Assembly (NCBI GenBank): GCA_018806915.1
Contig: JAGKQI010000091.1
Span: 3,224,001-3,288,000, forward strand
Length of the DNA stretch: 64,000 nucleotides
Direction of reading: 5' to 3'
Source: Phytophthora colocasiae
Lineage: Eukaryota; Oomycota; Peronosporomycetes; Peronosporales; Peronosporaceae
The notes under the pieces were generated by a model, which was not told where the DNA came from, did not search any database, and saw only the letters and a program-made list of their open reading frames with translations. Made by a program: the position numbers and the translations under genes. Numbering within the stretch: position 1 is the stretch's first letter; every line of letters starts with the position of its first letter. This document shows, in pieces, positions 43,627-64,000 of the stretch.

Positions 43627-44997
43627 GCTCGATGTCGAAGTATCCGTCCACCGTCTTCGTAAGCACAGTCGCGAACGGAATACCAACACGCTGCGACGTC
43701 ACAGCCAGACCGAACAGAGTAGCCTCGAAGTCCTCGCTGTCAACCTCAAGCATGAACAGTGCACCAACAAAGTCGGTGGCAGCGAACGGGATCTTCTCGA
43801 GAAGCGGGACACCAAGCCAGAACCACTGGCTGCGGACCACATCCCAGATCGTGAACATCGTCGGGATGATGTCGATGCACACGACAAGGACCTGGGCGAA
43901 GATGATAATGGTGCGCCAGTTCCAAGCAAGACCGTACTTCTTGATCAAGTACGTTCCGAGCATGGTCAAGAAGGCAGCAAGCATCGTCGCGATACCGTTG
44001 TTGATCGGCTCGACACCAGCCCATGTGCTTTGAATCGCACTTGACGAAGTCACGGAAATCATAGCGAGCACGTTGTAGAAGAAACGGAAGGCGATGTAGC
44101 GGTAGATGGTCTTGCGCTGAAGCAGCTCGTACAAGAAGACGTACACAGACTTGGACGGACCCGACGTGACACGCTCTTCCTGGATACAGAACCAGCAGAA
44201 CGGCAGCACAATGAGCGACATGCCGGCGCAGACGCCCATGATGGCGTTGAAGCCGATCGACCAGGAGAAGGTGCCACCGTAATCCTCGCTGTTGAGTCCG
44301 AGGCCGGTGAAGAAAGCGGAGACAATCGCAAACCAGTAGAAACAACATCACAGTCACCCATAGCAGTACCGCGAAGGTGTGAAGGCTCCTGCTGAGAGAT
44401 TTCAATCATCGTGCCATTGAAGCCGCTGTAAGCGAGCACAGTGCCGAAGTTGGCAATCATCATGAGAATGATCATCTTGATACCGCGGTTGGGTGCGTCC
44501 GTGTCGATCGTGGCGAGCTGTTCGGCCGTGAGTTCACTGGTATCCAGCTCGGCAATGGACTGGTCACTGTAGTACGGGTCTCCAAGAGGAAGCACGGCCA
44601 TGAGGAAACACGCCAAGAAAGTCATACCCCAACCGATCACGATGTACGGGCGACGACGGTAGCCGAAAATCGGAACAGTGTCCGTCAGCATTCCGGTGAA
44701 CACACGAAGACTACGCGGGAACTGGATAAGGGCAACAGCCGTAGCAACCAGCGTCGCGGACATGCGAAGGTAGTTGTTGAGCACTGCGTAGACGACACCA
44801 CTGATGGTGCTGTTGACGACGCCGACACCTGCCGAGTGGGCTGCCATACCGAAGTTCTCCCACGAGTACACTGATACGGAGCCACGGGCGGCACGTAGAG
44901 CGCCATTCTCGTGCTCACCAATCGACATGCCGTTCTCCACATAGGGAGACTTGGCTTCCGCGTAGGAATCTTGCTTGAGTTGCTCTGGAGCCTGCAT
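43627..44997 (-). pseudogene. Folate-biopterin transporter (FBT family), first exon, frameshifted
   Basis: A multi-pass FBT/MFS-type membrane transporter. The frame starting MQAPEQLKQDSYAEAKSPYV holds helices such as SLRVFTGMLTDTVPIFGYRR and the family loop after RRRPYIVIGWG. It reads to GDCDVVS near 44345, where a one-base shift moves the coding to the frame WFAIVSAFFTGLGLNS. That frame continues through IQEERVTSGPSKSVYVFLY to FDIE at a GTGAGT donor (43626-43621). The last exon is at 41285-41583. It would import folates or pterins at the plasma membrane. The frameshift and the MULE in the intron make it a probable pseudogene. The single-base shift could instead be a sequence error. Confidence 0.82.
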
Positions 44998-45006
44998 TGC
45001 GCTCAG

Positions 45007-45023
45007 AAGATTGAAAAGTGAGC
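45007..45023 (-). promoter_or_regulatory. Initiator plus flanking motif of the transporter gene
   Basis: On the minus strand this reads GCTCACTTTTCAATCTT. It closely follows the oomycete core promoter pattern GCTCAYTYYNCAWTTT and lies about 10 bp upstream of the ATG at 44997. Confidence 0.5.
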
Positions 45024-46612
45024 TCCGAGAAGAGATTTACAGCGTTGAGCCCCATTCAAGACGAAGGAGTTCGTGTGGATGACTGGACCTGCTCGCATTG
45101 CAAACGACAACAGGCAAAGAGCTCAAACAAGATGGTGATCTCAGCGCGCGGTGACCTGCATCGAGTGCAATGCACCGTACATGTATCCGAGGCCGCAAAC
45201 TGTATCCGAAAAAGCTCTGATTAACCCTCTAATCTCCACAGAGAGGGACTCGCTGCCGAAACTGTGACATACCAAGTTGTAGTTGTCGGTCTGGTTTTGC
45301 AAAATGGACGGAGATCATGAGATTTGGCCCCGCTCCAAGCTCCGTACAGTCAGCAAAAAAGCACAGACACCATTATGCTAGTCGCGGGGAAGTAAATGTG
45401 CATGTACATGCATGAACTTTGCAGAAACCTGTTGGTGCTGGTGTATTGGAGCATTAGAAGTTGAACACCAATGTACCGGACCGGTACTCCGGTGGTCTTA
45501 GTTGCTGCCAACGTGGTGATGATCACGTGGTTGTGGTAATGTCCTGGTTTTACTGTCCGACTAAAAACTGTACGTTGAAGGGCGCGCACGCGAATACCTA
45601 TGAGTCCCATTGGGCCGAGGCACGCGTCCAAGTTCCGTCTCTCGTAGACTACGAGTCGTAGTGGCGTTCAGGAAAACGCGGAGGGATTTCCTCCGGTGCG
45701 GCTGTACCGTCGGTCTGACAGCGTCCGATGTTGTGACAGCAATGCTGTTACCTGTACATCGAAGCACATTCGTATTCGTGCAAAACGTGTCGTGAAACTC
45801 AGTTTGAGTTTGTGTAGCCGTACGTGCACACTCCAGCACAGGTAGATGATACCATTGCTATGGTACATGTACTGTATGTGCTCTATCCGCTATCCATCTC
45901 GTTTCCAAGTGGCACACGCCTTGTCACCAGCTGAGAGAACTCAATTTTTTTCTGGCTGGCTCTCGAACCCATAGTACTGTACTGGATGTGTACATGTACG
46001 CTGCATGCCTTCAACTTGTACATGTACTGCTGAGCTTACACTTGTTGCAGCCATTCGTGTTTGCCTTCGCAAAAAATGAAATAACTCCCTTCAGCTACAG
46101 TACACACAGACTCAGGTAAGTTCTCATCTTGTTATACGGGCGGTGCATGGCGATGCGCCGTCAAATGTGATAACAAACAGGTTATGTCCGAAGGCGGTTG
46201 CGGGCACATCGGCACTGTACAGTATGTACACAAGACCAGTATTTCATCCCTGTAAGCTTACAAACGTTTAGCTAGTCGAGTTCATTAGCGCCGGTGCTTC
46301 CATCGTGGCAGTCTGCTAAGGGCTTCGCAACCACCGACATTTTTAACCACGAGTTCCGAAACCAAAAAAAACACAATGCAAGCATTTCTATCAGTCCTGC
46401 TGCCTGTAGTGTAGAAGGTTTCACCTAACACGGTTGTGGTAGTGATCAATTTGATAGCTCTGCATATACGTGTGCAAATGAACTTAAGAATTCGAGCTGC
46501 ATCTAGGCTTGGGAAATGGATTGAATCGGATCAATCGATATGTCTCGTCTGACTAATCCGATCGAGGTTGAATTCGTTTCGATCTTATTCGATTGAATCC
46601 GATTGATCGATC
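45024..46612. other. Gene-free stretch rich in TACATGTA palindromes
   Basis: No gene is recognised. Copies of TACATGTA or GTACATGTAC recur (near 45178, 45404, 45862, 45988, 46018). The right end (46528-46612) is rich in GATC/AATC words and is the target region of the Gypsy element. Confidence 0.5.
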
Positions 46613-46950
46613 TGTAATGGGCTCCAACTTTCCAGCACAAACGTCGGACGGGCGGTGGTTGAAGTGACGGAGATACCGCCACGCGGTAACATGCGTGCTC
46701 AGCGAAGACGGCTGAGGATAGGACGCACGGCACTTCAGGATCGTTGCGACGAGTTGGATCTGGACCGGGACTGCGAGCAAGGGCTCACTTACGAATTGGC
46801 AGCGAAGAGCGCATACCGATTCTGCAACCCGGGATTCAGGAGTGGACCCATACGCGACAGAGGAACGGTGAACGGTGGACGGACTGGTGCTTCGGACACG
46901 ACGGTGGACGAACGCTGGAACTTGGACGAACGGACGGACGAGCACGAGTG
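46613..46950 (+). repeat. Gypsy 5' LTR, left part
   Basis: 338 bp, identical to 59308-59645. Its last ten bases are the target site duplicated by the MULE. Confidence 0.95.
46941..46950. other. Target-site duplication of the nested MULE (left)
   Basis: AGCACGAGTG occurs here and again at 51002-51011. The undisturbed 3' LTR has it once (59636-59645). Confidence 0.95.
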
Positions 46951-47209
46951 AGGAAATATAACTTTCACATGTCAGAATCTGAAAAACACAGTAGCCCATC
47001 TCCACAATACGCACGGACAGGCCAGGCTCCATACCTGGCTGCGCACATCGCGATAGGAGTGACGGGATGAGCACGCTGGATGAACTTCTGGGCCGGCAGT
47101 GCTGTGGTACACACCGGATTGGGGTACTGTATATTCACACGCAATCTACGGTCGAAGCAGCATCCGCCGAAGAAGCGCTGCACGGGCGTCCAGCACTCAG
47201 ACCAAGACC

Positions 47210-48818
47210 ATGCCGGGCCTCAGCGCGTCGGAGCTGGCACCGGAAGAGCTCCGCGCAGGGGAAGTAATCGAGTATTATTCGCGCGCGTTCGTGTGTGGCG
47301 ACCGCCGAGGGTATCGTCGCGCTGTCGTCACCCGAGTCGATGGCGACGCGGACGTCGACTTTCCGATCAGGGTGGACACGGAGGAGGTGATCCCGCCGGA
47401 CATGATGCTTAAGCGGGTCGCAGACCGCTTCAGTATCCCCCTCAAGGCTGGGGTATCCAAGTGGCGCAAGCTCCGGACTTTTGATTTGGTGACGGGAACT
47501 TTCTCGGCGGAAATACGTTCCAGCGCACTCAATAAAGCGCTCGAAAAAGCAGTTTCAGATGCATTCGACGCCGTACGTGACGAATATCGCGATGCACGCG
47601 AGGAAATAGTTCCGGAAACGCCGCAAACCAGTGCCTGCAACTCTTCAGACGCGGAATCCAATGCGGACCACATGCGGTCACCCACCACACCGATGCGAGG
47701 CAGTACCCCGACTCCGAGCATTGCGGGAGGCCTCTATACGGTCTAAGGAGTGCCAGCAAGCGAGGGAATCGGCTTCGACTCATCTCTGGAAGCAGATTAT
47801 CGACTTAGTGTCGCCTGGAGAGGAGAGCGGATCGCAATCTAGTGCTGAATCAGGTCGACTTGGGCAAAGCAGAGGCGGCTGCTTACCTCAAGCCATACCG
47901 AACCGCCACGCCCGCGCGAAGATACGCCACCAAGCCAAGAAGAAGAGGGCGCAGTGGCACGTGCCCGATCGAGCGAAACGACGACACTGGCCGTGCGCCA
48001 TAACCAAGAGCGGGAACGCGATCTACCACGCTAAAACATTTAAGGCTGCAATATTCAAGAATTTGCAGAGCAGCCCGGAGGTGCAGGAGCACCTGGAGAA
48101 CTTGCACACTCGGCGTACTATCTACCCGGATCCCGCAAAAGGCGAGCCGCAACCTGCTCCGTGCTGTCCCATGGCCTGCCGAAATTCGACGCATTACCGG
48201 CTGCCAACGGAATGGCGTGAGATTTCCGGACATTGGGTCCTTCGACCCGTGCCAGTGCATGGGGGACTGCTTCTGGGACTCTTGCTCAAACGTGGCGTCG
48301 GCATCGTTTTGCACCCCGAAGTACTGCAACCTCGGAGCGAGGTGCAGCAACGCACCCCCCACACTGAGCACCCTGCAGTTGTTCGAGACTGGCCGTGTAG
48401 GCCTTGGGTGTACACCACAACTGATCTCGACGTCCGCGACGTAATGGGTGAGTAAAGCGGCGAGCTCACAGAGTTCCTGCAGTAGTTGAGGGTCAGCCGC
48501 CTGTTGCTGTGAAGGAGAACAGCGGGTACACGCTCCTGTATAATGCCAAGTCGGTGAACAAGAACTACGTATACGTAGACGCCTTGAGTGCGGCTCTATT
48601 GCGAGATTTCTTTCGCACTCCTGCGACCCCAACGCAGCCTTCGTGGAGCAGCAGACACGTGCACGAGTGCGTGTACTCGTCAAAATGATCAAGAACGTGA
48701 AGGCGGGCGCCCAGGTGACCAGTTCACTACGGTAATGAGCGATGGTTTAAAATGCGCATGTGATCGGTGCTGGCCGCCGCGTGTTGTAGAGGACATTAAC
48801 AGCGAAGAAGAGAAGTAG
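47210..48818 (+). pseudogene. AWS-SET-post-SET methyltransferase gene (degenerate, MULE-borne)
   Basis: The first frame, ATG 47210 to 47746, is an open 178-residue N-terminal part (ELRAGEVIEYYSRAFVCGDR...). The next frame carries a middle part to about 48215. Then an AWS-like cysteine block is readable (CQCMGDCFWDSCSN, FCTPKYCNLGARCSN; 48237-48345). SET motifs follow in further frames: a GE-GEL start near 48450, NSGYTLLYNA near 48520 and SHSCDPNAAFVEQQ near 48613. A post-SET motif CACDRC lies before the stop at 48818. At least five frame changes break it. The family writes lysine methylation on histone H3 in eukaryotes. Here it is cargo or a component of a transposon. The specificity is unknown. 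Confidence 0.8.
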
Positions 48819-48844
48819 GAGGTATTTCCTCGCATCTAATGCTA

Positions 48845-50816
48845 TCACCTAGTGCTCCCTCGATTAAATGAACTCACTGAGCAACCATTTCCTTCCACGT
48901 ATGAGTGCAGGAGACGAATCGACTTGCTTGAGTGCTGGGTCACTGAAAACTCAACGCTGGGCCGTTCGCTCGGCGACCAAGATTCGGAAGAGCGGCAACT
49001 TCCACACGTTTGCGCTCGACGATTTATCAGCACTTCATTTCCGCTGCTGTCTACATGCGCAGTCACGCGCAACGCAAACAGCACGTGGATGCACGCGCCG
49101 AATGCGAAATTGTAGTCGCAAGGACACCATTGGCGAAGAACATCCACAGGCCACCCGTCGAACGGCTCCTTTTCGACCTCCTTCCGCGCATAGTTGTCGC
49201 CCATTTGGGCTGTAACCGCGATATCCTCTTCGCTTCTCTTGTTGGGCGCCACAGGAACTAGGCGTGCACGCCGGGAAATGACTCGAAGAACGGAACAACT
49301 TCCAGAACGCACAGAATCGACGTCCTGGCCATCCGCCACGCCTAATAAGGACTGGCGAACCATCTCCGACACCCTCCGTGCGAGGGTTTGTGCAGGGCAT
49401 ACCGAGAACTCGAATGAACGGGCGCTAGACGACTGGTCTTGACAGCAGTTGCTCAACTCGCGCAGCAGAGTGCCCATCTTCAGCCTCCGACGCAGGGTAT
49501 AATCGCGCTTCAACAGCGCGTTGAAGGTTTCCGCCGGGTTGTTTGTGGACGCAAACCCGCTCGGTGTGGCGAAACCTGCCATCTTGTGAAGGAGCCCAGA
49601 CAGCCATTGTCCGATGGAAATACACCGCAAAGTGAACAAGCGTGGGTTCGGCCATCCAACGCTTCCAAATGCCACGCAGCATCTCGAAATAGTGTTCGTA
49701 GCTGCGCGCGAAGTGCAGATCGTACAGTTCGCTTAGCACCCGAGCTCGTGAACCCGAGGAGAGTAGTTTAATACGCTCCTGGATGTGCTTCATCACGTGG
49801 AAGAAGCACATCAGGAATTGGAACTTCTGATTGTCCCCAAACACTGCGTGGAGGGCATTGCACTGCGCTCTGTCGCCGTCGGCCATGGCGTACTGAACGG
49901 TCAGGTGCTTGTCGGCGATCCAGAGGTAGAGGCGCCGATGGGCCAGCAGCGCCGCATGGAAAATTGGCTGAGTCTCTTGAGAAATCACAAAGAGAGCCAC
50001 TAAGTGTAATCTCCGCGAGCGGTCGGACACCCCAACTACCAGGACAGGGTAGTCAAAGCTGATTTGTCTTGTAGGTGCCATCCAGATGCAGAATAAAGCT
50101 CTCTGGTGGCACCATGAGCTCATCATTAGGGCCTTCGTCGTGATGCCGACGAGGAACGGCTTCTCGTCCGAGCCGTTTCCGACTACGGGCAGGCCGGCGT
50201 TGTCCAAATGCCACGAGAACGTGAAGGGCTGCGTCATGCTCTCCGGAGCCGTCGTAAGCGTGCTCCTGATCCACCTGGTCAGGTCGCGGACGCGGTCGTG
50301 GTTCTCCATCCGCGTCCTGCCGTAGTGGTTAACGAAGTTCTGTACCGTCTTGAGCGGGGGGAGATCCTCGAGCGGAGTGGAGAACTTCCGCGAGAGCGCG
50401 CGGTGGATGCGCATGGTCCGGAGGTGGTTCTCGGACAACACCTGGCAGTAGGCTTTGTGGGCGAAGCTCAGCTTCTTACGCCCCGGTGACATGGTGGCCG
50501 AGGTGTGCTCTCCGACGACGTAGATAGACACGCGCTCGGTGTCCAAGCACGTAAGCATCTTGCCCCTCCACGGGCACTTCGCTGGGCTCGCCTCAGCGCA
50601 CGATTTGGAGCTGCATTCCAGCAGCCGATAGCGCATTTTGTGGTTGTTGTCGGTGCCCAGACAGATAGTGCACACCATCGCTTGGCTCTTGTCGATGTCG
50701 AACGACTTGAGCCGAGCCACCACCGCTTCAGCTTCGTCGTCGTCGACATCGACAGCCACCTCTCTCCAGCTAACCCGCCTCGGCATGCGCCGTCCGATTT
50801 GAATGATGTAGGCCAC
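48845..50816 (-). pseudogene. MULE transposase with SWIM zinc finger (degenerate)
   Basis: The long minus-strand frame 49425-50816 begins MAYIIQIGRRMPRRVSWREV. It has a zinc-binding N-terminus (KCPWRGKMLTCLDTE, VVGEHT) and the MULE core (MADGDRAQCNALHAVFG, FFHVMKHIQERIK). The first catalytic motif, LDGTYKTN, is readable only in another frame near 50060, so two shifts surround it. The end (NNPAETFNALLKRDYT and the SWIM finger CPCDYNFAFGACIH) lies in the frame 48845-49675. The protein would catalyse movement of the MULE. This copy cannot make a complete one. Confidence 0.85.
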
Positions 50817-51001
50817 ACTACAGTTTGCTCGAGCGTCCAGCAGCCCTAGCCGCGCCCCTTTTGCGCGAGTCTCGCATCGTGAGCTTGTACTGTGCTGCGA
50901 ATTGTGCTGACGCGAAAACTATTGTGCTGACCAGTTTCTATGGTGCCCACACAGACTTATTGTGCTCTTACAGCACTGTTGTGTGTCCGTAAGGCGTTCT
51001 C

Positions 51002-51333
51002 AGCACGAGTGGAGGACAACGGTCTTCACGCTTTCGGCGGCTGCGACGAGTAGGGCAACGCACAACGGTGTGGAGTCCGAGTGGTCGACGGCGGCAACTC
51101 GATCTTGGACGACAACGGAACGGACGAACGGTGTTAGTCTATTGACGGGCTTAGAGTAGCTAGTCGTAGTCTACCTAGAACGAACGGAAACACAAATACA
51201 AATAGGTCGTGTGTCAGTACGATACACACCGGCGGGGTAGTGGAAGTTCCTCTACCGACAGCCAACGGACGCTTGGACCATCAGCACTGGGCGACCAAAG
51301 CTCGGCGTGCAGAGCTAGACTAGACACGTTACA
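51002..51333 (+). repeat. Gypsy 5' LTR, right part
   Basis: Begins with the second copy of the duplicated AGCACGAGTG, then matches 59646-59968 except for one missing C. A primer-binding region TGGTGGTCATACAGG follows at 51334. Confidence 0.95.
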
Positions 51334-51378
51334 TGGTGGTCATACAGGGGCCTTCTGGAACAAGTAAACAAGAACGAA

Positions 51379-53280
51379 ATGGCACGTACGAAGGTGATCA
51401 CTGTTCCGGCCTCCCAAGCAGCAAAGAAGCAGAAGAAAACAGCGACGGCAACACCTATGAGCTTACTGGCACCGGGCATCGGTCAGAGCATGACGTCCCC
51501 AGCCAGCGACGACACGGACGACGAACAACGCACGATCAATCCTGGAAACGAGGAATCCAAGAATGAGGACGAAGAGCCAGATGTGCAGCCGAATCCGGAT
51601 AACGACCAGGCCATTGACACGGTTTCGGATACTGGACCTACTGCTGAACAGTCGCCGGCGGGCACGGACGCAGCCACGGGCGCGGCGGCGGCGGCACCAG
51701 CAACGACGGGCGAGATGCCGGCGCTCTCGGCAGTGCTCCTTCAGCTGTCGGAGACGATGAACAGGATGACGGCGCGGCTTGACAATCTGGAGGTGGCGGT
51801 GGCGACATCGATGAGCAGCCAAGCGACGGCGACGCACGGGACGGCGGCAGCAACCGGCGCCACACACACGCCCACACCAGCAGCAACTACGGTGGATACA
51901 CGACATGTTACGTACGTACGAGAACCCGACGGTGGTGACGGAGATGATAGCAGCTCCAGCGGTGATTCGAGTAGCGGTGACGACGGCGACGATCACGGCG
52001 ACTCACCAAGCGGCTCTGATGACGGTGGCGCAGGACGAGGACGACGGGAACGGCACGCGGCACCAGCACCACGACACGGACGCCGGAAGAACATCAGGGA
52101 TCTGGAGCTTACGCCGTTTCAGCCATCGCCTAACAACTCGGTGTCGACTTGGATCAAGAAGGTGGATCTGGCTCTGGAGGGTGCACGTATTTCGGGACGT
52201 GGTGGTTGGACGGACGGTGAACTGTACTACATTGTCGGCAACAAGTTGCAGGACGACGCGGCACGCTTCTGGGTGCAGGTGGATCAAGGCATGCGACCGG
52301 AGATGAGGACGTGGTCATACCTGAAGGCGGCATTGAAACGACGTTATGGTGAGCGACCAGACAAATCCCAAGCCGAGCTACGAGTGAATCAACGATACCT
52401 TATGCCGGGTGAGACGTTCGCCGATTTCGCTGCGGGACTTCGTGATGCGCGTGGGGAAAACAAAGTGAGCGAACGCGTGCTGCTCGCGCAATTCATCCGC
52501 AACCTGCCCAAGACGACGAGGCAGCTGGTCCGCGAGAGCAAGCCCAAAACTCTGGACAAGGCGGTGGATAAGGCGACTGAAGTGGATGACCCCTTTGACA
52601 ACGTGGCGCAGGGGATGAAGAACATCGGCCAGGAATGGATCACTGCTCAGATGGCGTACCCGGTGACAGTTGGCACGGCGTCTGGACACGCGATGGTGGT
52701 CCCAGGTGTTGGAGTGCGGGCGGTGACGGCAACGACGCTGACGGCGCCTACAGACCCGGACTGGGCGATATTTTCGAACCCGCAAGGCGTGTGGAATAAG
52801 TTCACGGGCATCTGGGATATACCCGAAGGACGTGTGTGGAATGGGCGCTACTGGGCTGTTCGGCAAAACCGCAAGCGCACCGCGAAGCCAACTGCTGAAG
52901 AACCAGGGAAGAAGACTGCGACGGCGCCAAAGGCGGACAAGAAGGTCATCGCCAAGGTCAAGATGGTCAGGGCCGAGGACAGCGACGATGACGACGTGAG
53001 CGAGGACGAGACGCTGGCTACGCCACCCGTAAAGCGTCGGAGAGCGAAGCAAACGAAGGCTACGACCCGGGCGACACGAGGAGCGGAACAACCTCGGCGG
53101 CAGTCAGAAACGCAACCAGCGGCACGACCCATTGGGCAACTTTCGTGTTACGCGTGTGGCAGGGCCGGTCATTTTGCGAAGGAGTGTCCGGACACAGAGG
53201 CGAAGGCTCGGAACGACGCCTACTTAGCTACGCGTGCTCAGAAGGATCCGGTGAAGGAAAACGAGGAGCGGGAGCCGTAG
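51379..53280 (+). CDS. gag: Gypsy gag polyprotein
   Basis: An intact frame of 633 residues from ATG 51379. The N-terminus is acidic and Thr/Ala-rich. The retrotransposon gag core covers about residues 235-420 (ELTPFQPSPNNSVSTWIKKV; AALKRRYGERPDKSQAELRV; LLAQFIRNLPKTTRQLV). A basic acidic-patch region and one CCHC knuckle (CYACGRAGHFAKECPD, about 590-605) follow. It forms the particle and binds the element's RNA. Its end overlaps the pol frame by about 135 nt, and pol lies in the -1 frame. Confidence 0.93.
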   Translation: MARTKVITVPASQAAKKQKKTATATPMSLLAPGIGQSMTSPASDDTDDEQRTINPGNEESKNEDEEPDVQPNPDNDQAIDTVSDTGPTAEQSPAGTDAATGAAAAAPATTGEMPALSAVLLQLSETMNRMTARLDNLEVAVATSMSSQATATHGTAAATGATHTPTPAATTVDTRHVTYVREPDGGDGDDSSSSGDSSSGDDGDDHGDSPSGSDDGGAGRGRRERHAAPAPRHGRRKNIRDLELTPFQPSPNNSVSTWIKKVDLALEGARISGRGGWTDGELYYIVGNKLQDDAARFWVQVDQGMRPEMRTWSYLKAALKRRYGERPDKSQAELRVNQRYLMPGETFADFAAGLRDARGENKVSERVLLAQFIRNLPKTTRQLVRESKPKTLDKAVDKATEVDDPFDNVAQGMKNIGQEWITAQMAYPVTVGTASGHAMVVPGVGVRAVTATTLTAPTDPDWAIFSNPQGVWNKFTGIWDIPEGRVWNGRYWAVRQNRKRTAKPTAEEPGKKTATAPKADKKVIAKVKMVRAEDSDDDDVSEDETLATPPVKRRRAKQTKATTRATRGAEQPRRQSETQPAARPIGQLSCYACGRAGHFAKECPDTEAKARNDAYLATRAQKDPVKENEEREP

Positions 53281-56200
53281 GGGGAGTACGGTGTCCGGGT
53301 AAATGGCAGAGACCCCAGCGACCGACGGTGGTGGCAGACGACGGCAAGGACGAGAAGGCGGTGCAATTGTCGGTGGCCAGCGACGCAAAGGTCAAGAGTG
53401 TGAGGACGGTGGAAAAAGCGACAACGGACGGGAGTACGAGAACAGTGCGGGCGGCTGTGAGTGCTCAGTTGAATGATGAGATCGACGCGCGTGACAAGAT
53501 ACGAGCGGCGAGATACGTGGCGACGGTGAGGCCGGCAATGGCGGCATTACGCTACGGACGAGGACGGAAAACGGAAACAGAGAAGAGAGTGCGTACAGCT
53601 GAGGAAGGCGACGGCGTACTAAACGACGAGCGTCCAGCTGAGGAAGGCGACGGCGCACCGGATGACAAACGACCGGCTGAGGAAGGCGACGGTGTACCGG
53701 ACGACGGACGTCCAGCTGAGGAAGGCGCGACGGCGAGTAACGACGGAAACGCGAATGGCGGAACGACTACGAGAAGCGAGTCGGTTGAGGATTTGGCGGG
53801 GGAGTTACCGGACGACGCGACGGAACCCACCAGGACCAGGGCCCCGGCCCGGAAGGCGGCGAAGCAGAGACGCAAGGAAGCGAAGCGTCGACGAGTACGG
53901 CGTGCACTGGAGAAGGCCGCAGCCGTCATAGAGGCCGATGACGTGGAACGGGTAGTCGCGGAGTTGGCAGCTGAAGAACAGGCGCGTCGTCGGCAGCAGA
54001 TAGCCGATGCGCGACAGGAACTGAAGGAACGATGGCAGCGTGGTGGTGGCAGTGCGGCTCGGGACGACGCGGACAAGGCCCACGTCAACCTGGTGCGCAC
54101 CACAGAAGTGATGGTGGCTGCGGATGGAAATCACGGTCTTGTAGACAACGCGGAAGCGAGTGACGGCCTGCCGACGGCGACTATGATGGTCGACGGTGAG
54201 CGGATGGCGGTGAAGATTGACAGCGGCGCCAGGTACTCGGTAGCCGGCACGGACTGGATGATGAGAGGTGAGCGAGTGAAGCGACCGGCTCCGGTTGACT
54301 GTGTCGAAGGCATTGGTGGATTCCTGCTGGACGTCCTAGGGCTATGGACATTTCGCATGCAGAACGTATTTGGACAGACTGTGGAGGTGACGGCATGTAT
54401 TATCGAAGGCTGCACCAGTGAGTTCCTGGTCGGAGTGGATTTTTTGGAGAAGCACCGTGCGGTGTTGGATTTTGAAGGTGGTGAGCTGCGCTACGATGAG
54501 CGAGGTAGGGAAGTGGTCATCCCATTCCACACGGACAATGACGGCGACGAGCGCAAGGCAGCGAGTGTGCGACTAGTTGGTGCTGCGAACTTGGAGCGAC
54601 GCGCGGTGCAGCCGGTGGAAGTGGCGGTAGCGGCCCCGGAAGGTGAAGAAGGCGTCTTCATCCCGACGTGCGAGACTGGTGCAGTATTGTTAGCCCCGGC
54701 GGTGACGAAGGTTCGCAATGGGAAAGCTCTGGTGCCGGCTGTGAATGCGTACGGTGGACGAACAAAGCTGCCTAACCGTAAGGAACTTGGTGCATGGATT
54801 CCCCTTAAGGCAGACATGGACGTGTTGGCAATGAACGGTGAACTCAGGACGGATCGACTGGAGAAGTGGCTTGGCGAGCTTGGTGACACGGAAACGCCCC
54901 TGCAGAACGAAGACGATGTGCAGATTGGAGTGAAGGACGAACACGCACGGAAACTCGTGCTGAAGCTATTGCGGTCGTACAGGAAGCTGACGGAGGCACC
55001 GAAAGATTGCCCACCGGCTACGACTCTGAATGTGGAGCACCATATCGACACTGGAAACGCTGCCCCTATTTTGATGAAGCGACGACGGCAGGCGCAGACA
55101 GAGGACGCCACCATCGAGGAGAACGTCGATACGATGTTGAAAGCGGGCGTCATCGAGGAAAGCGACGGTGCATGGGGATTCCCCGTAGTATTGGTCAAGA
55201 AGAAGGACGGCTCTGTCCGTTTCTGCGTTGATTATCGGGCGTTGAACAGGATAACGAAGAAGGACGTTTACCCACTTCCGAGGATAGATGAAACGTTGGA
55301 GGCGTTGGGCGGCGCACGGCGGTTTACTACACTGGACCTACAGGCAGGTTACTGGCAGATCAAGGTAGCGCGTGGCGATCGTGACAAGACCGCGTTCCTT
55401 ACCAAGCGCGGGCTCTACAGATTCACGCGAATGCCCTTCGGCCTTACCAATGCGCCAGCTACGTTTCAACGGTTAATGAATGGAGTGCTACGAGGGTTGA
55501 CATGGACTACTTGCCTAGTGTATCTGGATGATATTGTCGTGTTTACCAAGGGCAACGTCGAGCGACACGTGGTCGAGGTGGCTAATGTGCTGGAACGACT
55601 GGCGAGCGCCGGCTTGAGCCTCAAACTCAAGAAGTGCAGCTTCGTGTCGGAGTCGATGGAGTATCTGGGGCACACGTTGAGCAACAAGGGCGTGCAGCCG
55701 ACGGAGCGACTCGTGAAAGCGGTGACCGACTTTCCAAGACCGGTGGACGCTACAGAGGTGAAGAGGTTCGTACACCTGGCGGGCTACTATCGGAAATTTA
55801 TCGCAGCGTTTGGGTCTATTGCGGAGCCGATGACGAGGTTGCTGAAGAAGGATTGTCCCTGGGAATGGACTGAGGACCAGGAGCAGGCGTTCGAGAGGAT
55901 TAAGACGCTGCTAACTACGCGTCCGTTGCTGAGTTATCCAGACTTTGGGCGGGCATTTCGATTGGTGACAGACGCCAGTAAAACTGGGCTGGGCGCCTGC
56001 CTCATGCAAGACTTTGGACGTGGATGGCAGCCGGTGGCTTACGCTTCGAAGGTGAATAGTGCGGCGGAGGCTAACTACGCGATTACGGAGCTCGAGTGTT
56101 TGGCGGTGGTCTGGTCGGTGAAGCTTTTTCGCCCGTACCTGTACGGCAGGACATTTAGCATCGTCACTGACCACGCCGCATTGAAGTGGCTGATGACGCG

Positions 56201-59200
56201 ACCGAACCTGGCGGGACGACTTCACCGTTGGTCCCTTACTCTACAAGAATACGACTTTAGCATCGAGTACAGGCCTGGCTCGACGAATGTGATGGCGGAC
56301 GCTTTGTCCCGTGCTCCGGCGGCGGTACGAGCGGTGGTGCGACCTCAAGATGGACGGCTGGTACCCCGAGAGAGCGATGTCGGTGTACAGATAGCAAGTA
56401 CGGACGATGATACGGTGGTGACTCGGCCTACGCACGATGAGACGATGGTGACGCAGACTGTGGACAACGAGGCGATGGCGATGACTATGATGGGCGGTGA
56501 GGCGTCGAACGTGGTTGGTACGGCTACCGGTATCAATGCGGTGGCTACTGGTGAGGATGTGGTGGACACGGCGGCGGCCGAAGCGACGGTAACTACCGGA
56601 GAGGCAGCAACCGGCGGTGTGACGGAGACTCCGTTAATCTGCGCATCGACGAGTGCGGCCACGAGTGAGGCGGGTACGAATGAGGCGGCTACGATGACGG
56701 CAGCAACGTGCACGGTGACGGCTGCGACTGACGCGACCATGGCGGCGAGTATGGCGGGCGACCCCACGCTGGAGACAACAGGGACGGCCTCTTCAACGGA
56801 GATGGCAGTGACGGTTGCGCCACGCGAGGGACCAACGATGGACAGTACGGTGGCCGAGAACGCGGGCACGACGGCGTCGGTGACAGAGAATGCGGGCACG
56901 ACGGCACTGAGCCCCATGGTCGGCAACACGACGAACGAGACGCACCTGGCAACTGACCGGACGTCGAAGAAACGGGCGAGGCGTAAAAGGACGGCGCCAG
57001 AACCGGCGACGCGGAGGAGTACTCGTATTCGCGAACAAGAACAGAGGCGCGTACGCTTCAGAGACGACCAGGCACCGGTAGTTACGGGGGACGCGACGGC
57101 AGCAGATGACGCGGCGACGACAGCTATTGCGGACGAACGGCAGGCATTGCAAGGCGAGACCGACGGCGGCGGCACGAGGTGTGAGGAGACCTTGGCCACG
57201 GTGGCAGCTCCCGTGTCGATACCGACAAAGACCCGAGGCTCGAGTAGCAGTACGGCAACGAGCGGCGGCGGATCAGGTAACGGGCAGCAGGCAGCAGAGG
57301 ACGATTCCGCGGTGACACTAACGACGGCTGCTACGGCGGCGCCGCGCACGACAACGAGGACTGCAGCGACGGATGCAGCGATGAGCTGTGCACCTACGGT
57401 ACGCCACAGGACGCGGACGGGAAGCGGCATTAGCAAGGACGACGAGCGAGGTCGACGAGTACCAGCAACGGGTATGGCGACGCGAGCGGAACGGGCGACG
57501 ACGAGCCCACCCGGAACGGCTACACCTGGGGATGGACGGCGAGCATCCAAGAGAATAGCCCCTGCAGTGCTGCCTACAATCCCAGCCCCTGCGATGACAA
57601 CGGCGGTGACTATGGACAACTTGGAAGGCGAGAACGACGTACCGGCGATGGAGACCTTGCAGTTGGACGATACGGAGATCGTTGCAGCTCAACACGAGAG
57701 CAAATTTGTAAAGAAGGCGACGGACGCTGGAGCGTATCGAGGCATGAAGGTGGACGTGAAGTTCGGGTTGGCGGTGATCGACACCAAGAACGGCTGGAGA
57801 GTGTTGTTACCACCGACATTGTGGGCACAAGTCTTCAAGGAGATGCACGGTTCGGTATGGTCTGGACATTTACGAGGCCCACACACTTACGGACGCGTCG
57901 CACAATTATACTGGTGGCCGAAGTTACGACGGGAGGTGAATCGCTGGGTACGAGGCTGCCCGGAATGTGGAAGCAGGAAGGCACGTCCGCGAGAAGTTAT
58001 CCCGCCCCTACGCAGTATACGAGGTGGAGGTGTTGGCGATCGATGGGCGCTCGACGTGGCTGGACCTTTTCCTCTGGCAGACGGGGGTGAACGATACGTG
58101 ATTGCGGCTCTGGAATACGTAACACGATACGCAGTGGCGTGTTGTGTAGTACAGCACACGGCGGAGGACATCGCGAAGTTTCTCATGGAAGAAGTTGTAC
58201 TCAAGTTTGGCGTTTTTCGAGAGTTGCTGACGGATGGAGCTCCAGAGCTCACGGGCAGCGTGATCGACGAACTAGTGAATATGCTACAGGCGAAACAGAT
58301 CAATCCGGTTCCGTACAGACCGCAGATGGTTGGCTTGGTGGAGCGTTTCCACAGGACCTGGAAGGACTGTGTCGCAGTCTTCATGCAGGACGAGCAACAG
58401 AGAGACTGGAACCTGTGGGTGAAGTTCGCAGCGTATGCGTACAACTCCGCGCAGCATTCAACCGTGAAGCTCTCCCCGAACGAATTGATGATGGGCCGCA
58501 AGTTGCGAGCCCCTAACGAACTTCTACGACGAACCGAGGTGGCGGAGGCGGGCGAGTTGTCGATGTACCATGAACGGTTGCTGCAAGCCATGAAACGGAG
58601 CAGTGAGTGCGCTGAGATCGCACGCGTACGTGAACAGGAGCGGCAAGCGAAGTTCTATAACCGGAATGTCAGGAACAAACGGGAGTTTCACATTGGCGAC
58701 AGGGTCTGGCTGTACAACCCACCGCGAGGGCCAAGGGCGACCAAGTTTGTACATCAGTGGATGGGGCCCCTGCGCATTTTGGAACCAGCCGGGTACGAGA
58801 ACTTCCTGTTGAAGCGTGAAGACGGACTGGGCAAGGAAGAGACGATCATCGCACACGTTTCCTTCTTAGTGAGTTACTACGAGCCTACGAGTCCACTTTC
58901 TCAAGCGGCAGACAACATTGACGCTGAACTCCGCGATGAAGACGACGGATGGAATGGCGAGGCGCCAGCGGCGGCTGTACGAACAGCGACGGCAGCTACT
59001 GGGCGAACGGCGACAGAGGAACGAACGAAACGAAATAGGACAGCAATGGGCGGAGCGACGAGCAGTGACGACACGCGTGGACTCCTGGTGGAGCAACGGC
59101 GACGCAGACGGCGGAACCGAGCAGGCCACTACACGCTGGAGTACGAGCTCTGCCCAGTTGGCGACATTGGACGGTGGACAACCGGCGACGGTGAACAGTG

Positions 59201-59312
59201 GACGACGAGGGACGGACGACCGCGGGGCAGATGGGTCTCGGTTGCTGAGTACGAGCAGCTCTACTGCACCGGGCGGGTCGTGGAAGACCCTTGGAGAGAG
59301 GAAGTCGTGTAA
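53145..59312 (+). CDS. pol: Gypsy pol polyprotein (protease-RT-RNase H-integrase)
   Basis: An intact 2,055-residue frame without its own ATG at the start, so it is probably expressed as a Gag-Pol fusion by -1 frameshifting. The protease motif DSGA is near residue 358. Reverse transcriptase runs from about 660 to 880 with YLDD near 792. RNase H is near 942 (TDASKTGLGAC). The integrase zinc domain is at about 1570-1610, with catalytic Asp near 1636 (LDVAGPF), Asp near 1696 (LLTDGAPE) and Glu near 1731 (LVERFHRTW). A ~420-residue Thr/Ala-rich spacer separates RNase H from integrase. The 13-residue repeat RPAEEGDGxPDDx occurs near 150-200. The stop codon lies in the first bases of the 3' LTR. I see no classical chromodomain. 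Confidence 0.93.
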   Translation: MLRVWQGRSFCEGVSGHRGEGSERRLLSYACSEGSGEGKRGAGAVGGVRCPGKWQRPQRPTVVADDGKDEKAVQLSVASDAKVKSVRTVEKATTDGSTRTVRAAVSAQLNDEIDARDKIRAARYVATVRPAMAALRYGRGRKTETEKRVRTAEEGDGVLNDERPAEEGDGAPDDKRPAEEGDGVPDDGRPAEEGATASNDGNANGGTTTRSESVEDLAGELPDDATEPTRTRAPARKAAKQRRKEAKRRRVRRALEKAAAVIEADDVERVVAELAAEEQARRRQQIADARQELKERWQRGGGSAARDDADKAHVNLVRTTEVMVAADGNHGLVDNAEASDGLPTATMMVDGERMAVKIDSGARYSVAGTDWMMRGERVKRPAPVDCVEGIGGFLLDVLGLWTFRMQNVFGQTVEVTACIIEGCTSEFLVGVDFLEKHRAVLDFEGGELRYDERGREVVIPFHTDNDGDERKAASVRLVGAANLERRAVQPVEVAVAAPEGEEGVFIPTCETGAVLLAPAVTKVRNGKALVPAVNAYGGRTKLPNRKELGAWIPLKADMDVLAMNGELRTDRLEKWLGELGDTETPLQNEDDVQIGVKDEHARKLVLKLLRSYRKLTEAPKDCPPATTLNVEHHIDTGNAAPILMKRRRQAQTEDATIEENVDTMLKAGVIEESDGAWGFPVVLVKKKDGSVRFCVDYRALNRITKKDVYPLPRIDETLEALGGARRFTTLDLQAGYWQIKVARGDRDKTAFLTKRGLYRFTRMPFGLTNAPATFQRLMNGVLRGLTWTTCLVYLDDIVVFTKGNVERHVVEVANVLERLASAGLSLKLKKCSFVSESMEYLGHTLSNKGVQPTERLVKAVTDFPRPVDATEVKRFVHLAGYYRKFIAAFGSIAEPMTRLLKKDCPWEWTEDQEQAFERIKTLLTTRPLLSYPDFGRAFRLVTDASKTGLGACLMQDFGRGWQPVAYASKVNSAAEANYAITELECLAVVWSVKLFRPYLYGRTFSIVTDHAALKWLMTRPNLAGRLHRWSLTLQEYDFSIEYRPGSTNVMADALSRAPAAVRAVVRPQDGRLVPRESDVGVQIASTDDDTVVTRPTHDETMVTQTVDNEAMAMTMMGGEASNVVGTATGINAVATGEDVVDTAAAEATVTTGEAATGGVTETPLICASTSAATSEAGTNEAATMTAATCTVTAATDATMAASMAGDPTLETTGTASSTEMAVTVAPREGPTMDSTVAENAGTTASVTENAGTTALSPMVGNTTNETHLATDRTSKKRARRKRTAPEPATRRSTRIREQEQRRVRFRDDQAPVVTGDATAADDAATTAIADERQALQGETDGGGTRCEETLATVAAPVSIPTKTRGSSSSTATSGGGSGNGQQAAEDDSAVTLTTAATAAPRTTTRTAATDAAMSCAPTVRHRTRTGSGISKDDERGRRVPATGMATRAERATTSPPGTATPGDGRRASKRIAPAVLPTIPAPAMTTAVTMDNLEGENDVPAMETLQLDDTEIVAAQHESKFVKKATDAGAYRGMKVDVKFGLAVIDTKNGWRVLLPPTLWAQVFKEMHGSVWSGHLRGPHTYGRVAQLYWWPKLRREVNRWVRGCPECGSRKARPREVIPPLRSIRGGGVGDRWALDVAGPFPLADGGERYVIAALEYVTRYAVACCVVQHTAEDIAKFLMEEVVLKFGVFRELLTDGAPELTGSVIDELVNMLQAKQINPVPYRPQMVGLVERFHRTWKDCVAVFMQDEQQRDWNLWVKFAAYAYNSAQHSTVKLSPNELMMGRKLRAPNELLRRTEVAEAGELSMYHERLLQAMKRSSECAEIARVREQERQAKFYNRNVRNKREFHIGDRVWLYNPPRGPRATKFVHQWMGPLRILEPAGYENFLLKREDGLGKEETIIAHVSFLVSYYEPTSPLSQAADNIDAELRDEDDGWNGEAPAAAVRTATAATGRTATEERTKRNRTAMGGATSSDDTRGLLVEQRRRRRRNRAGHYTLEYELCPVGDIGRWTTGDGEQWTTRDGRPRGRWVSVAEYEQLYCTGRVVEDPWREEVV
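59293..59304 (+). promoter_or_regulatory. Polypurine tract of the Gypsy element
   Basis: GGAGAGAGGAAG ends three bases before the 3' LTR and would prime plus-strand DNA synthesis. It is also coding, for the last residues of pol. Confidence 0.75.
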
Positions 59313-59968
59313 TGGGCTCCAACTTTCCAGCACAAACGTCGGACGGGCGGTGGTTGAAGTGACGGAGATACCGCCACGCGGTAACATGCGTGCTCAGCGA
59401 AGACGGCTGAGGATAGGACGCACGGCACTTCAGGATCGTTGCGACGAGTTGGATCTGGACCGGGACTGCGAGCAAGGGCTCACTTACGAATTGGCAGCGA
59501 AGAGCGCATACCGATTCTGCAACCCGGGATTCAGGAGTGGACCCATACGCGACAGAGGAACGGTGAACGGTGGACGGACTGGTGCTTCGGACACGACGGT
59601 GGACGAACGCTGGAACTTGGACGAACGGACGGACGAGCACGAGTGGAGGACAACGGTCTTCACGCTTTCGGCGGCTGCGACGAGTAGGGCAACGCACAAC
59701 GGTGTGGAGTCCGAGTGGTCGACGGCGGCAACTCGATCTTGGACGACAACGGAACGGACGAACGGTGTTAGTCTATTGACGGGCTTAGAGTAGCTAGTCG
59801 TAGTCTACCTAGAACGAACGGAAACACAAATACAAATAGGTCGTGTGTCAGTACGATACACACCGGCGGGGTAGTGGAAGTTCCTCTACCGACAGCCAAC
59901 GGACGCTTGGACCCATCAGCACTGGGCGACCAAAGCTCGGCGTGCAGAGCTAGACTAGACACGTTACA
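59308..59968 (+). repeat. Gypsy 3' LTR
   Basis: 661 bp, uninterrupted, TGTAA...TTACA. It serves as the reference that defines the MULE insertion in the 5' LTR. Confidence 0.96.
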
Positions 59969-61064
59969 GATCGATCGGATCCAATCAAAAATGTATAAAA
60001 TTCTAGGAGAAACACAAAAAATGATATAGACCCTAGTGTTGGGATTCACAAGAAATACGTTCTTGTAGGTATAGAGTCTACCCAATGACATTTAGAACCT
60101 TTACGATTCTATGAAGCGATTAAGACATTCTGCATTAAATATTTGAGGTCATATTGTCGTTGTTGTTCGTCTCCAGGATGAGTTTTTTTGCAGCAGGAGT
60201 CCTAGCAAGAAGTTTTCTGTTAGGAAATGTTTTTCGTAGGAGCCTAAGGCAGAAGAAAGTGACGAATTTTATTGTGTGTGGCTCTACGCTACCCGTCGGG
60301 ACGCCGTCATGAAATCGTCAGCAGACGCACCTTCCGTATATTCAATGCAGCATCTCGCTTTTCGCGGAATACCAGCAATAGAGACTCCCGGAACACATCC
60401 GAAAACTACGCCACCGATTACGCCTGCGGCTAGCCCACTGCAGACTCCGGCGGAAAATTAATGAGCATATATCCAACAGCGTCGGCGACACGCCTGCAAC
60501 GCTGTAGCCAAGTCGTACCAGCACTTCTGCCTGCTTGTTGTTGAGCACCACCCAGCTCATCGATGTGCCCGGGAACTTCCACGTCCCGTTGTGAAGCTGT
60601 CCATGGCGAGCCGAACATGTACAAGTCGCTCATCAAGAGTCTTGATTGGCGACTTGTACATGTACTTGATTCAAGATCATTGCCGCGCTGTCCGTCGTGG
60701 TACGCCCCACCGCTTACCACTTCACCCGAACACGAAGCTCAAGTCCAAGTGTGATACCTCTCCCTGGCAGTGTCTACCAGCACATCACGGCATTGGCTCG
60801 CCACTTCTGGGACCGAACTTTCCTTCGTTGAGGTAGGAATTTTGCGCCATGATCTGTGTGTGATTGAAGTTTTTATACTTGGAATTTGTATGGGTTGATT
60901 CGATCCAATCGATCCGATCGGATCGGATCGGATCGGATCGGTAGTTGCACCTGCACCAAATTCCTCCGTGGGACAGACTAAGGCTGCACGCCGAACGGTA
61001 ATGAGCTGACTTCACTTCTCTACTTTGGCTTTACTACGTAGGCAAGATACCACAAGTAGAATCA
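59969..61064. other. Intergenic, simple repeat, no confident gene
   Basis: A minus-strand frame near 60342-60560 (SWVVLNNKQAEVLVRLGYSV) looks faintly protein-like but lacks a gene context. The (GATCG)n tract at 60911-60941 and two GTACATG-type words near 60615 and 60655 are the only other structures. Confidence 0.4.
60911..60941. repeat. (GATCG)n microsatellite
   Basis: Four to five copies of the pentamer GATCG in a wider tract of GATCC/GATCG words. It resembles the GATC-rich target flanks of the Gypsy element. Confidence 0.8.
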
Positions 61065-63111: not shown

Positions 63112-63272
63112 TTCACTGACTAGTTCAGTACAGTGAACCATTGACCCCATCAGAATCGAACGCCCAGGCAACGCGCATTAATCTCTCGCGGAGATATGGT
63201 TGGAAAAATGTTGTTTTGTGTTTGTCTTCTATCACTTTGGTAGTGGTATGTTAATCAGAAGAGTCTCGGCAC

Positions 63273-63640
63273 ATGACTCTGAATGACACATACGAGCGGA
63301 ACTGCAAGACACGCAATAGTTCCCAGTGGAGTCGCATTCAATATATCGCTCGTAGACGTGAAAGTATCATGAACCCGAAGCTATACACGTCCTGAACGTC
63401 TCTCCGTCAATTTGAAAGGGCAGTTCGTCGTCGTCGCTTTGGTTTCCAAACATTCATCTACTTCCCTATGGGGTACGACGATCCGGCATTACAGGTACAA
63501 CTGCATGTCCAAAGTCTCCTTCGTTGTCAAACACACATGTGTCACCACGGTGTACGCATTGTAGACATTATCCATTGCATCGAGGCTCCCCCCATGCGAG
63601 CTTCCACCTCGTACATTTGGGAGTAATCTCCACACACCAT
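63273..63640 (+). pseudogene. Unrecognised gene remnant with an in-frame stop
   Basis: A plus-strand frame from ATG 63273 reads MTLNDTYERNCKTRNSSQW and continues through TGA at 63393-63395 to a coherent stretch (FGFQTFIYFPMGYDDPALQV; HHGVRIVDIIHCIEAPP). It ends at TAA near 63632. Amino-acid composition on both sides of the TGA looks coding-like, and a single change from a Trp codon would explain it. I do not recognise the family. It may belong to the partial frame at the window edge. Confidence 0.35.
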
Positions 63641-63770
63641 GTTACCACACAAATGCCAGAAGAAGTCGCAACGGAATAAGCGGTAGCGGTTGGAATAGAT
63701 CGAGCACAATGACGCATTGTGATGCAACGATGACAAGTTCCACGTGGATGTGGATGGAGATACAGCTTTA

Positions 63771-64000
63771 ATGACTTCTGACTCGAGCTGGGTGGAGGAG
63801 TTCACGGACCAATTGTATTTAGATGACCCTAGTAAACATGCTCCGGAATCCCTTTGTCAGTTGGTGAACCCAGTACCTTTGTACAAGTACGAGTTCGTGG
63901 ATCCTGCAACAAGTGACTATAGCGCTATCCGACGCTCGGATCGGGAAACCAGCGTAGAACCGGGCATCTGTTTAATTGACGACGCCCATGTGGCTGAAAC
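63771..64000 (+). CDS. Partial unrecognised protein, runs off the window
   Basis: A frame open from about 63723, with ATG at 63771, continues to the last base of the window (MTSDSSWVEEFTDQLYLDDP; LYKYEFVDPATSDYSAIRRS). It is acidic and free of low complexity, which favours real coding sequence. No family is recognised. The start may be an internal Met, because the preceding 350 bp look like an eroded part of the same gene. Confidence 0.4.
   Translation, partial: MTSDSSWVEEFTDQLYLDDPSKHAPESLCQLVNPVPLYKYEFVDPATSDYSAIRRSDRETSVEPGICLIDDAHVAE

What the first reader, a model, noticed from the sequence alone, without database searches (positions are those of the whole stretch)
46951..51001. A Mutator-like transposon that carries a SET-domain methyltransferase gene
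The insertion limits are exact, because the same LTR is present uninterrupted at 59308-59968 and the 10-bp AGCACGAGTG is duplicated at the junctions. Inside are only two genes, facing each other: a MULE transposase and an AWS-SET-post-SET gene that fill almost the whole element. A histone-methyltransferase-type gene travelling as a fixed component of a DNA transposon would be notable. It could mark chromatin at donor or target sites, or counter silencing. What I see is the domain set and the boundaries; the role is inference.
Basis: partly seen in the sequence, partly recalled or inferred. Interest (0 to 1): 0.88.

Follow-up and report, generated by a model that had tools for sequence, protein, structure and literature searches.

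The report
Transposon carrying a histone-methyltransferase-type gene
A jumping gene in a water mould of the Phytophthora kind carries, as a lasting second gene, an enzyme of the sort that marks chromatin; such pairings were already catalogued, but here the pair is shown to be old, precisely mobile and kept by natural selection.

Summary
Observation confirmed with corrections. The insert is 46950-51001 (4,052 bp) with a 9-bp (not 10-bp) target duplication; ends GAG...CTC. Both genes are frame-broken in this copy, but relatives in the same genome have both open. It is not a one-off capture: of 20 listed transposase places at least 50% identical, 18 have SET tail-to-tail; of 26 at 40-49%, none. 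SET and transposase distances agree over 12 elements (r 0.75, 0 of 10,000 permutations). SET is under purifying selection near that of the transposase. Some transposase-deleted copies with their own 9-bp duplications kept SET, fully open in one.

Prior art: Dupeyron 2019 lists "SET for 14 members" of MULE-Phytophthora_1; Kojima 2025 mentions it. Known kind, new detail. Likely role (inferred): an element-encoded chromatin writer countering histone-based silencing in a host reported to lack 5mC. Substrate untested; a SAM-site Asn is Ser in 37 of 48 homologues scored.

The parts
46950..51001 (.). Mutator-like element of the SET-bearing clade (4,052 bp), ends GAGGAAATATAA ... GCGTTCTC; short imperfect inverted ends, no long TIR found
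   Evidence: same ends in close copies with different 9-bp duplications
46941..46949 (+). left copy of the 9-bp target-site duplication AGCACGAGT
51002..51010 (+). right copy of the 9-bp target-site duplication AGCACGAGT
47210..48815 (+). SET-domain gene, frame-broken in this copy (pieces in three frames); relatives have open frames of 569-658 aa
   Evidence: open relatives; Pfam SET 2e-14 in L002
48943..50786 (-). MULE transposase gene, frame-broken in this copy (pieces in three frames)
   Evidence: Pfam MULE 6e-12 (window ORF), 1.7e-19 (L002)
46613..46949 (+). first part of the 5' LTR that the element split (includes the left 9 bp)
51002..51333 (+). remainder of the split 5' LTR (starts with the right 9 bp)
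59308..59968 (+). uninterrupted 3' LTR of the same retrotransposon: serves as the empty site (the 9 bp at 59636-59644 present once)

Best explanation
A two-gene Mutator-like DNA transposon. SHOWN: it inserts with 9-bp duplications; a clade of such elements in this genome, with relatives in other Phytophthora and Nothophytophthora, carries a SET gene tail-to-tail with the transposase as a fixed, co-inherited and selectively maintained component. INFERRED: the transposase (MULE domain) does cut-and-integration. The SET protein acts on the chromatin of the element, or of its target site, as an element-encoded histone lysine methyltransferase, most likely of the H3K36 (NSD/ASH1/SETD2) type. There it opposes histone-based repression (H3K27me3/H3K9me3) in a host reported to lack 5mC, so that element genes stay expressed. 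It can act in trans, which would let transposase-deleted SET copies persist. My confidence in 'fixed component under selection' is 0.95, and in the anti-silencing step about 0.4; the score below is for the whole chain.
For: Precise mobility: 9 of 14 copies read at both ends have perfect 9-bp duplications, each different; 3 more have 8 bp, 1 has 9 bp with a mismatch, and 1 (L005) has none at its left end, being apparently a segmental duplicate of L004. Fixed component: 18 of 20 transposase places at >=50% identity have SET convergent within 128-813 bp; 0 of 26 at 40-49%; 1 of 22 below 40%, that one a second SET-MULE lineage (71 of 574 candidates scored). Of 21 SET-MULE domain pairs within 6 kb, 15 share one spacing, 1.34-1.53 kb, all convergent (the other 6 have other spacings, 2 of them divergent). 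Other species: consecutive locus tags in P. rubi (PR001_g27627/8) and Nothophytophthora (BBJ28_00023856/7); equal contig lengths in P. megakarya (two) and P. palmivora; P0002 and P0054 are truncated SET proteins. Co-descent: Mantel r 0.75 over 66 pairs, 0 of 10,000. Selection: SET omega 0.20 (0.15-0.27) for L073/L075 and 0.14 (0.11-0.20) for L072/L074; transposase 0.25 (0.18-0.41) and 0.10 (0.07-0.13) for the same pairs. Enzyme class: best solved relatives by single sequence NSD1 1.3e-12, NSD3 4e-11, ASH1L 4e-10; by alignment profile NSD1 1.5e-15. Host setting: effector-gene silencing by H3K27me3 and small RNA and no detectable 5mC in Phytophthora (PMC12781887, abstract start and passages); H3K9me3 and H3K27me3 coincident in P. 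sojae (PMC7082073, passages).
Against: No activity, expression or chromatin data exist here. The Asn of the SAM-site NHxC motif is Ser in 37 of the 48 homologues where a loose pattern found the motif, Asn in 3, other in 8 (11 of 59 without the motif), so catalysis may be weakened or lost. The substrate call rests on sequence ranking only; EHMT2 (H3K9) is close behind at 1.1e-11, ahead of ASH1L and SETD2 in the profile search, and the sister lineage MULE-B ranks EHMT1 first. None of 26 related MULE places at 40-49% has SET, so it is not required for MULE mobility in general. Two close transposase places (C10:1555199, C58:3149718) have no convergent SET within 4 kb. SET is somewhat less conserved than the transposase in most pairs compared. 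The paper evidence on H3K27me3 concerns effector genes, not these elements. The structure prediction could not be run.
Confidence: 0.45

Rival explanations
1. SET is a restraint or targeting factor: it writes a repressive mark (H3K9-like) at element copies or at insertion sites, limiting damage to the host or steering insertion into safe chromatin.
For: G9a/EHMT-type SETs come soon after NSD1-3 for the MULE-A profile and first for the sister lineage MULE-B; the window copy sits in a retrotransposon LTR.
Against: The AWS-type Cys pattern and the best ranks favour NSD; insertion preference was not surveyed.
Confidence: 0.2
2. SET methylates a non-histone partner (such as the transposase), or has lost catalysis and works as a binding or scaffold protein.
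For: NHxC Asn replaced by Ser in 37 of 48 homologues with the motif found; a long N-terminal half without any Pfam family over its cut-off.
Against: Tyr-Gly of the active site and the post-SET cysteines (Y509, G510, C517, C519, C522) are kept in at least 90% of 32 aligned proteins; purifying selection over the frame.
Confidence: 0.25
3. One-off gene capture (Pack-MULE passenger) with no role for the transposon.
For: MULEs are known to pick up host gene fragments (PMC6446971, start of abstract and passages).
Against: Shared layout across lineages down to about 50% protein identity and across species, co-descent and purifying selection.
Confidence: 0.03
4. Boundary or gene content is an assembly artefact.
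For: The window copy has 24 indel events against L002 (20 of 1 bp, 15 in homopolymers) and few transitions (8 of 29 substitutions), a pattern that could be consensus error; L002 and L003 differ by 6 substitutions and 3 indels.
Against: Copies on other contigs have the same ends with different 9-bp duplications; proteins of other species' assemblies show the pair. At most the frame breaks of this copy are artefact.
Confidence: 0.02

Closest known systems
MULE-Phytophthora_1, group 16 of Dupeyron et al. 2019 (PMC6446971, passages seen); Repbase MuDR families of oomycetes (Kojima & Jurka 2014, cited in PMC12730594, not seen)
   Same: Oomycete MULE, TIRs 'None, except one with 71 bp', 1 or 2 ORFs, 'SET for 14 members' (table row)
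   Different: The row says of target duplications 'Not indicated in RepBase'; I saw no layout, selection or clade-wide count in the passages; no sequence was available to place this family on their tree
HarbingerS (Kojima & Jurka 2014, not seen; named in PMC12730594)
   Same: DNA transposon with a SET gene in Phytophthora
   Different: Harbinger transposase, not MULE
proto-Helentron-Pi (Thomas et al. 2014, PMC4067079, passages seen)
   Same: Phytophthora infestans rolling-circle element with a SET ORF
   Different: Rep/helicase element; SET similar to Clr4 by their account
VANDAL MULEs of Arabidopsis with VANC (recalled; Hosaka 2017 is cited in PMC12730594, not seen)
   Same: MULE with an extra gene that acts on its own epigenetic state
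   Different: VANC acts against DNA methylation in a sequence-specific manner and is not a SET protein (recalled)
TET/JBP-bearing fungal DNA transposons (PMC12730594, passages seen)
   Same: Epigenetic enzyme as a recurrent transposon gene, found in several superfamilies
   Different: Acts on 5mC in DNA
SETMAR/Metnase
   Same: SET plus transposase
   Different: One domesticated primate fusion gene, not a mobile two-gene element (recalled; title and abstract starts)

Membership tests
Mutator-like elements (MULE/MuDR) | MULE transposase domain | tested here: met
   PF10551 1.7e-19 in L002, 6e-12 in a window ORF
Mutator-like elements (MULE/MuDR) | 8-11 bp target duplication | tested here: met
   9 bp perfect in 9 of 14 copies read at both ends; 8 bp in 3, 9 bp with one mismatch in 1; none in 1
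Mutator-like elements (MULE/MuDR) | long TIRs (absent in non-TIR MULEs) | tested here: not met
   no inverted repeat of 40 bp or more in 44000-64000; only short imperfect ends GAG...CTC. Families without TIRs are accepted as MULEs (PMC6446971 passage), so this does not exclude membership
Mutator-like elements (MULE/MuDR) | DDE catalytic triad in place | not tested
   only loose motif scans were run
MULE-Phytophthora_1 (Dupeyron group 16) | no long TIR, second ORF with SET, oomycete host | tested here: met
   host inferred from the best protein relatives; the group's row
MULE-Phytophthora_1 (Dupeyron group 16) | position in their transposase tree | not testable with these tools
   Repbase sequences not held
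SET-domain proteins | SET domain over curated cut-off | tested here: met
   54.3 bits against 22.4
AWS-SET-post-SET H3K36 methyltransferases | AWS Cys pattern | tested here: inconclusive
   pattern present in 9 of 9 MULE-A copies scanned; Pfam AWS below cut-off, E 0.37; only one Cys of that region (C349) is kept in 90% of the 32 aligned proteins, several of which lack the region
AWS-SET-post-SET H3K36 methyltransferases | post-SET CxCxxC | tested here: met
   found in 44 of 59 homologues; the 15 misses include truncated proteins
AWS-SET-post-SET H3K36 methyltransferases | NHxC SAM-site Asn (its role is recalled) | tested here: not met
   Ser in 37 of 48 with the motif found, Asn in 3, other in 8; 11 of 59 without the motif. 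Hence not filed as a proven enzyme of this class
AWS-SET-post-SET H3K36 methyltransferases | H3K36 methylation activity | not testable with these tools
   needs bench assay
Transposon anti-silencing factors (VANC-like role) | restores expression of silenced element copies | not testable with these tools
   no expression or ChIP data held

The most novel reading that the evidence does not exclude
In Phytophthora, which is reported to lack 5mC, SET proteins are the transposon counterpart of VANC and TET: diffusible, element-encoded chromatin writers (H3K36-type) that antagonise PRC2/H3K9 silencing. They were recruited by MULE, Harbinger and Helitron lineages, and sustain both full and transposase-deleted SET-only copies.
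Probability: 0.3. Interest if true: 0.78.

Novelty: new member of a known kind. Interest (0 to 1): 0.45.

Why it matters
It shows that a chromatin-modifying gene is a durable, selected part of a transposon clade rather than a passenger. That makes a clear question testable: does a transposon-encoded histone methyltransferase defeat host silencing in an organism said to have no DNA cytosine methylation? It also warns annotators that many SET-domain hits in a Phytophthora genome belong to transposons or other repeats, not to host regulators.

Tried and rejected
Rejected: one-off capture; assembly artefact as the source of the boundaries; the 10-bp duplication (9 bp plus the element's G); SET as a general MULE feature (20 of the 150 MULE hits scored lie within 6 kb of a SET hit). 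Long TIRs were looked for in the window copy and not found. Led nowhere: structure prediction (never started); the position of MULE-A against SET-less MULE transposases on a tree (DNA not obtained). Paper searches gave nothing that I used beyond what was already found; one search gave one paper, whose only relevant mention is in its reference list; the Ectocarpus paper has no SET-domain mention. Search 16 first listed PMC4067079, read in passages.

Limits: MULE and transposase lists are lower bounds (150 of 645 and 71 of 574 candidates scored; 70 of 614); SET lists 150 of 157, 81 of 213, 98 of 171. The first SET tree had three truncated rows and is superseded, in which I left out seven rows of the first (L035, L036's near-copies aside, L040, L050, L054, L058, L060 among them) and added L077 and P0050; rows taken as host genes were judged so only by frame length and single copy. 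The Mantel set includes partial SET sequences (C74; P0002; P0054, which lacks the SET domain proper). Of the SET places without a listed transposase only 10 were held as DNA. dN/dS is saturated for many pairs; only pairs with finite dS are quoted. The chance figure (2.9) assumes uniform placement.
Full report
WHAT IS THERE. The 661-bp LTR of a retrotransposon (46613-59968) is split by a 4,052-bp insert; the partner LTR at 59308-59968 is uninterrupted, with no substitution and one 1-bp length difference against it. The insert begins GAGGAAATATAA and ends GCGTTCTC. So the duplication is 9 bp. Since the LTR pair shows no substitution, the retrotransposon, and the insertion into it, are probably recent (gene conversion not excluded). 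The insert nevertheless differs from L002 by 29 substitutions and 24 indel events (20 of 1 bp, 15 in homopolymers), so those differences were brought along by a damaged donor or are consensus errors; I cannot tell which.

THE GENES. In this copy the SET gene (47210-48815, +) is spread over three frames and the transposase (50786-48943, -) over three frames. In the same genome L002 has both genes open (transposase frame 660 aa, SET frame 579 aa), and so have the distant relatives L072 (638/602) and L074 (626/658). Pfam on L002: MULE 1.7e-19; SET 2e-14 over the whole model; AWS not significant. Against solved structures the SET half is closest to NSD1 (1.3e-12), then NSD3 and ASH1L; with the 32-sequence alignment NSD1 1.5e-15, NSD3, NSD2, then EHMT2 1.1e-11 and ASH1L 3.5e-11. 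The active-site Tyr-Gly and post-SET cysteines are kept in at least 90% of 32 aligned proteins; the NHxC Asn is Ser in 37 of 48 homologues where the motif was found.

IS SET A FIXED COMPONENT? The genome search with the L002 transposase (71 of 574 candidates scored) gave 68 places. At 50% identity or more, 18 of 20 have SET tail-to-tail within 128-813 bp; at 40-49%, 0 of 26; below 40%, 1 of 22. Of the two exceptions, C10:1555199 has a family SET in the right orientation 8.75 kb further on, which may be a nested insertion (not read); C58:3149718 has none listed. In a separate look with Pfam models, 21 SET-MULE pairs lie within 6 kb (2.9 expected if both were placed uniformly); 15 share one spacing (1.34-1.53 kb) and all 15 are convergent. 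Of 10 family SET places without a listed transposase that I hold as DNA, 9 have a convergent transposase remnant; the tenth (L017) is a short fragment. Three of these are compact derivatives: L076 lost 1.4 kb of transposase, kept a 569-aa open SET frame and has its own perfect 9-bp duplication; L006 and L022 also have perfect 9-bp duplications with most of the transposase gone, their SET frames not whole.

OTHER SPECIES. The hits of the SET protein whose names show a species are from Phytophthora (ramorum, rubi, nicotianae, fragariae, palmivora, cinnamomi, megakarya, citrophthora, cactorum, fragariaefolia; capsici by my reading of the label Phyca11) or Nothophytophthora (59 hits, 66, some without a species; only the best 7,993 and 8,000 candidates were scored). 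Over 12 elements (7 own, 5 foreign) the SET and transposase distance matrices agree: r 0.75, 0 of 10,000 permutations. So the pair appears to have descended together since before these lineages split.

SELECTION. For pairs with unsaturated dS, SET omega is 0.20 (bootstrap 0.15-0.27, L073/L075), 0.22 (0.15-0.29, L073/L076) and 0.11 (0.04-0.21, L075/L076); transposase 0.25 (0.18-0.41, L073/L075). For more diverged pairs SET is 0.14 and transposase 0.10 (L072/L074); SET against L002, where dS is near 2, gives 0.26-0.27. The young pair L002/L005 gives 0.40 with a wide interval (0.15-1.37). SET is thus constrained, somewhat less than or about as much as the transposase.

A SECOND LINEAGE AND OTHER CARRIERS. 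A more distant SET-MULE lineage (MULE-B: L077 on C57, C100, C92) has SET convergent with its transposase in 3 of 3 places listed at 74% identity or more. Its SET groups with MULE-A SETs (100/99) apart from six SETs taken as host genes and from the other amplified SETs (the program warns of long branches, and MULE-A alone has only 92/83). Its transposase is no closer to MULE-A (39%) than the SET-less MULEs are (37-45%). So SET was either gained before the split and lost often, or moved between MULE lineages; this is not resolved. A Helitron-like repeat (SET ORF between RPA-OB and DUF6570 ORFs) carries an ASH1L-like SET.

KNOWN OR NEW. The kind is in print. Dupeyron et al. 2019 list group 16 MULE-Phytophthora_1 as Oomycota, TIRs 'None, except one with 71 bp', 1 or 2 ORFs, 'SET for 14 members' (table passage). 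[quoted passage not shown] Thomas et al. 2014 describe a SET ORF in a P. infestans proto-Helentron. In the passages of these papers that I read I saw no target-duplication length, co-descent, selection analysis or SET-retaining deletion derivatives for the MULE group; searches are the searches behind that statement, and no paper was read whole. Whether this very family is in Repbase could not be tested.

HOW IT LIKELY WORKS. Shown: mobility with 9-bp duplications, fixed pairing, co-descent, constraint. Inferred: SET is a chromatin writer for the element. Phytophthora is reported to silence effector genes by H3K27me3 and small RNA and to lack detectable 5mC (PMC12781887, abstract start and passages), with H3K9me3 and H3K27me3 coincident in P. 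sojae (PMC7082073, passages). In such a host a histone enzyme is a natural tool for escape, and H3K36 methylation is known to hinder PRC2 (recalled, no call). Against this stand the Ser at the SAM site, the uncertain substrate class, and the SET-less relatives that do without it. A restraint or targeting role, and a scaffold role, remain open.

Noticed in passing
L038-L041, L045, L057 (C41, C100, C22, C32, C93, C53 of the own genome): A Helitron-like repeat (copies mostly 98-99% alike over 1.8-3.3 kb) with an ASH1L-like SET ORF (249-267 aa, 217 in L045) next to RPA-OB (PF16900) and DUF6570 ORFs (Pfam run on L039 only); resembles the proto-Helentron SET of P. infestans in print.
   Followed up: partly
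L042, L043, L046-L050, L055 and L035-L037, L044; cluster at C6:1128191-1142685: Two further amplified SET families (182-aa ORF and relatives), four copies clustered on C6; the three flanking ORFs tested by Pfam had no hit, so the carrier is unknown.
   Followed up: partly
L077:822-5343, C100:165895-170417, C92:521679-526185: Second SET-MULE lineage (MULE-B); L077 has a canonical RFINHSCDPN motif. SET copies without a listed transposase at C84 (two) and C52.
   Followed up: partly
L076 (C46:52600-56300), L006 (C49), L022 (C100): Transposase-deleted derivatives that retain SET sequence and have their own perfect 9-bp duplications; SET fully open in L076.
   Followed up: yes
L004/L005 (C83:1622682-1632122): Two copies 1.3 kb apart with the same right flank; looks like a segmental tandem duplication rather than two insertions.
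   Followed up: partly
window 46950-51001: Excess of 1-bp, homopolymer indels and few transitions in this copy against L002-L005: real decay or consensus error.
   Followed up: partly
window 46613-59968: LTR retrotransposon with a 661-bp LTR pair at 0 substitutions and a 633-aa open frame at 51379-53280 that looks gag-like by eye (not tested); GATCGATC on both sides in a near-palindromic target.
   Followed up: no
P0016, P0058 (P. nicotianae): Proteins named DNA polymerase delta small subunit and voltage-gated potassium channel subunit beta match this SET family: probably misnamed or fused gene models.
   Followed up: no
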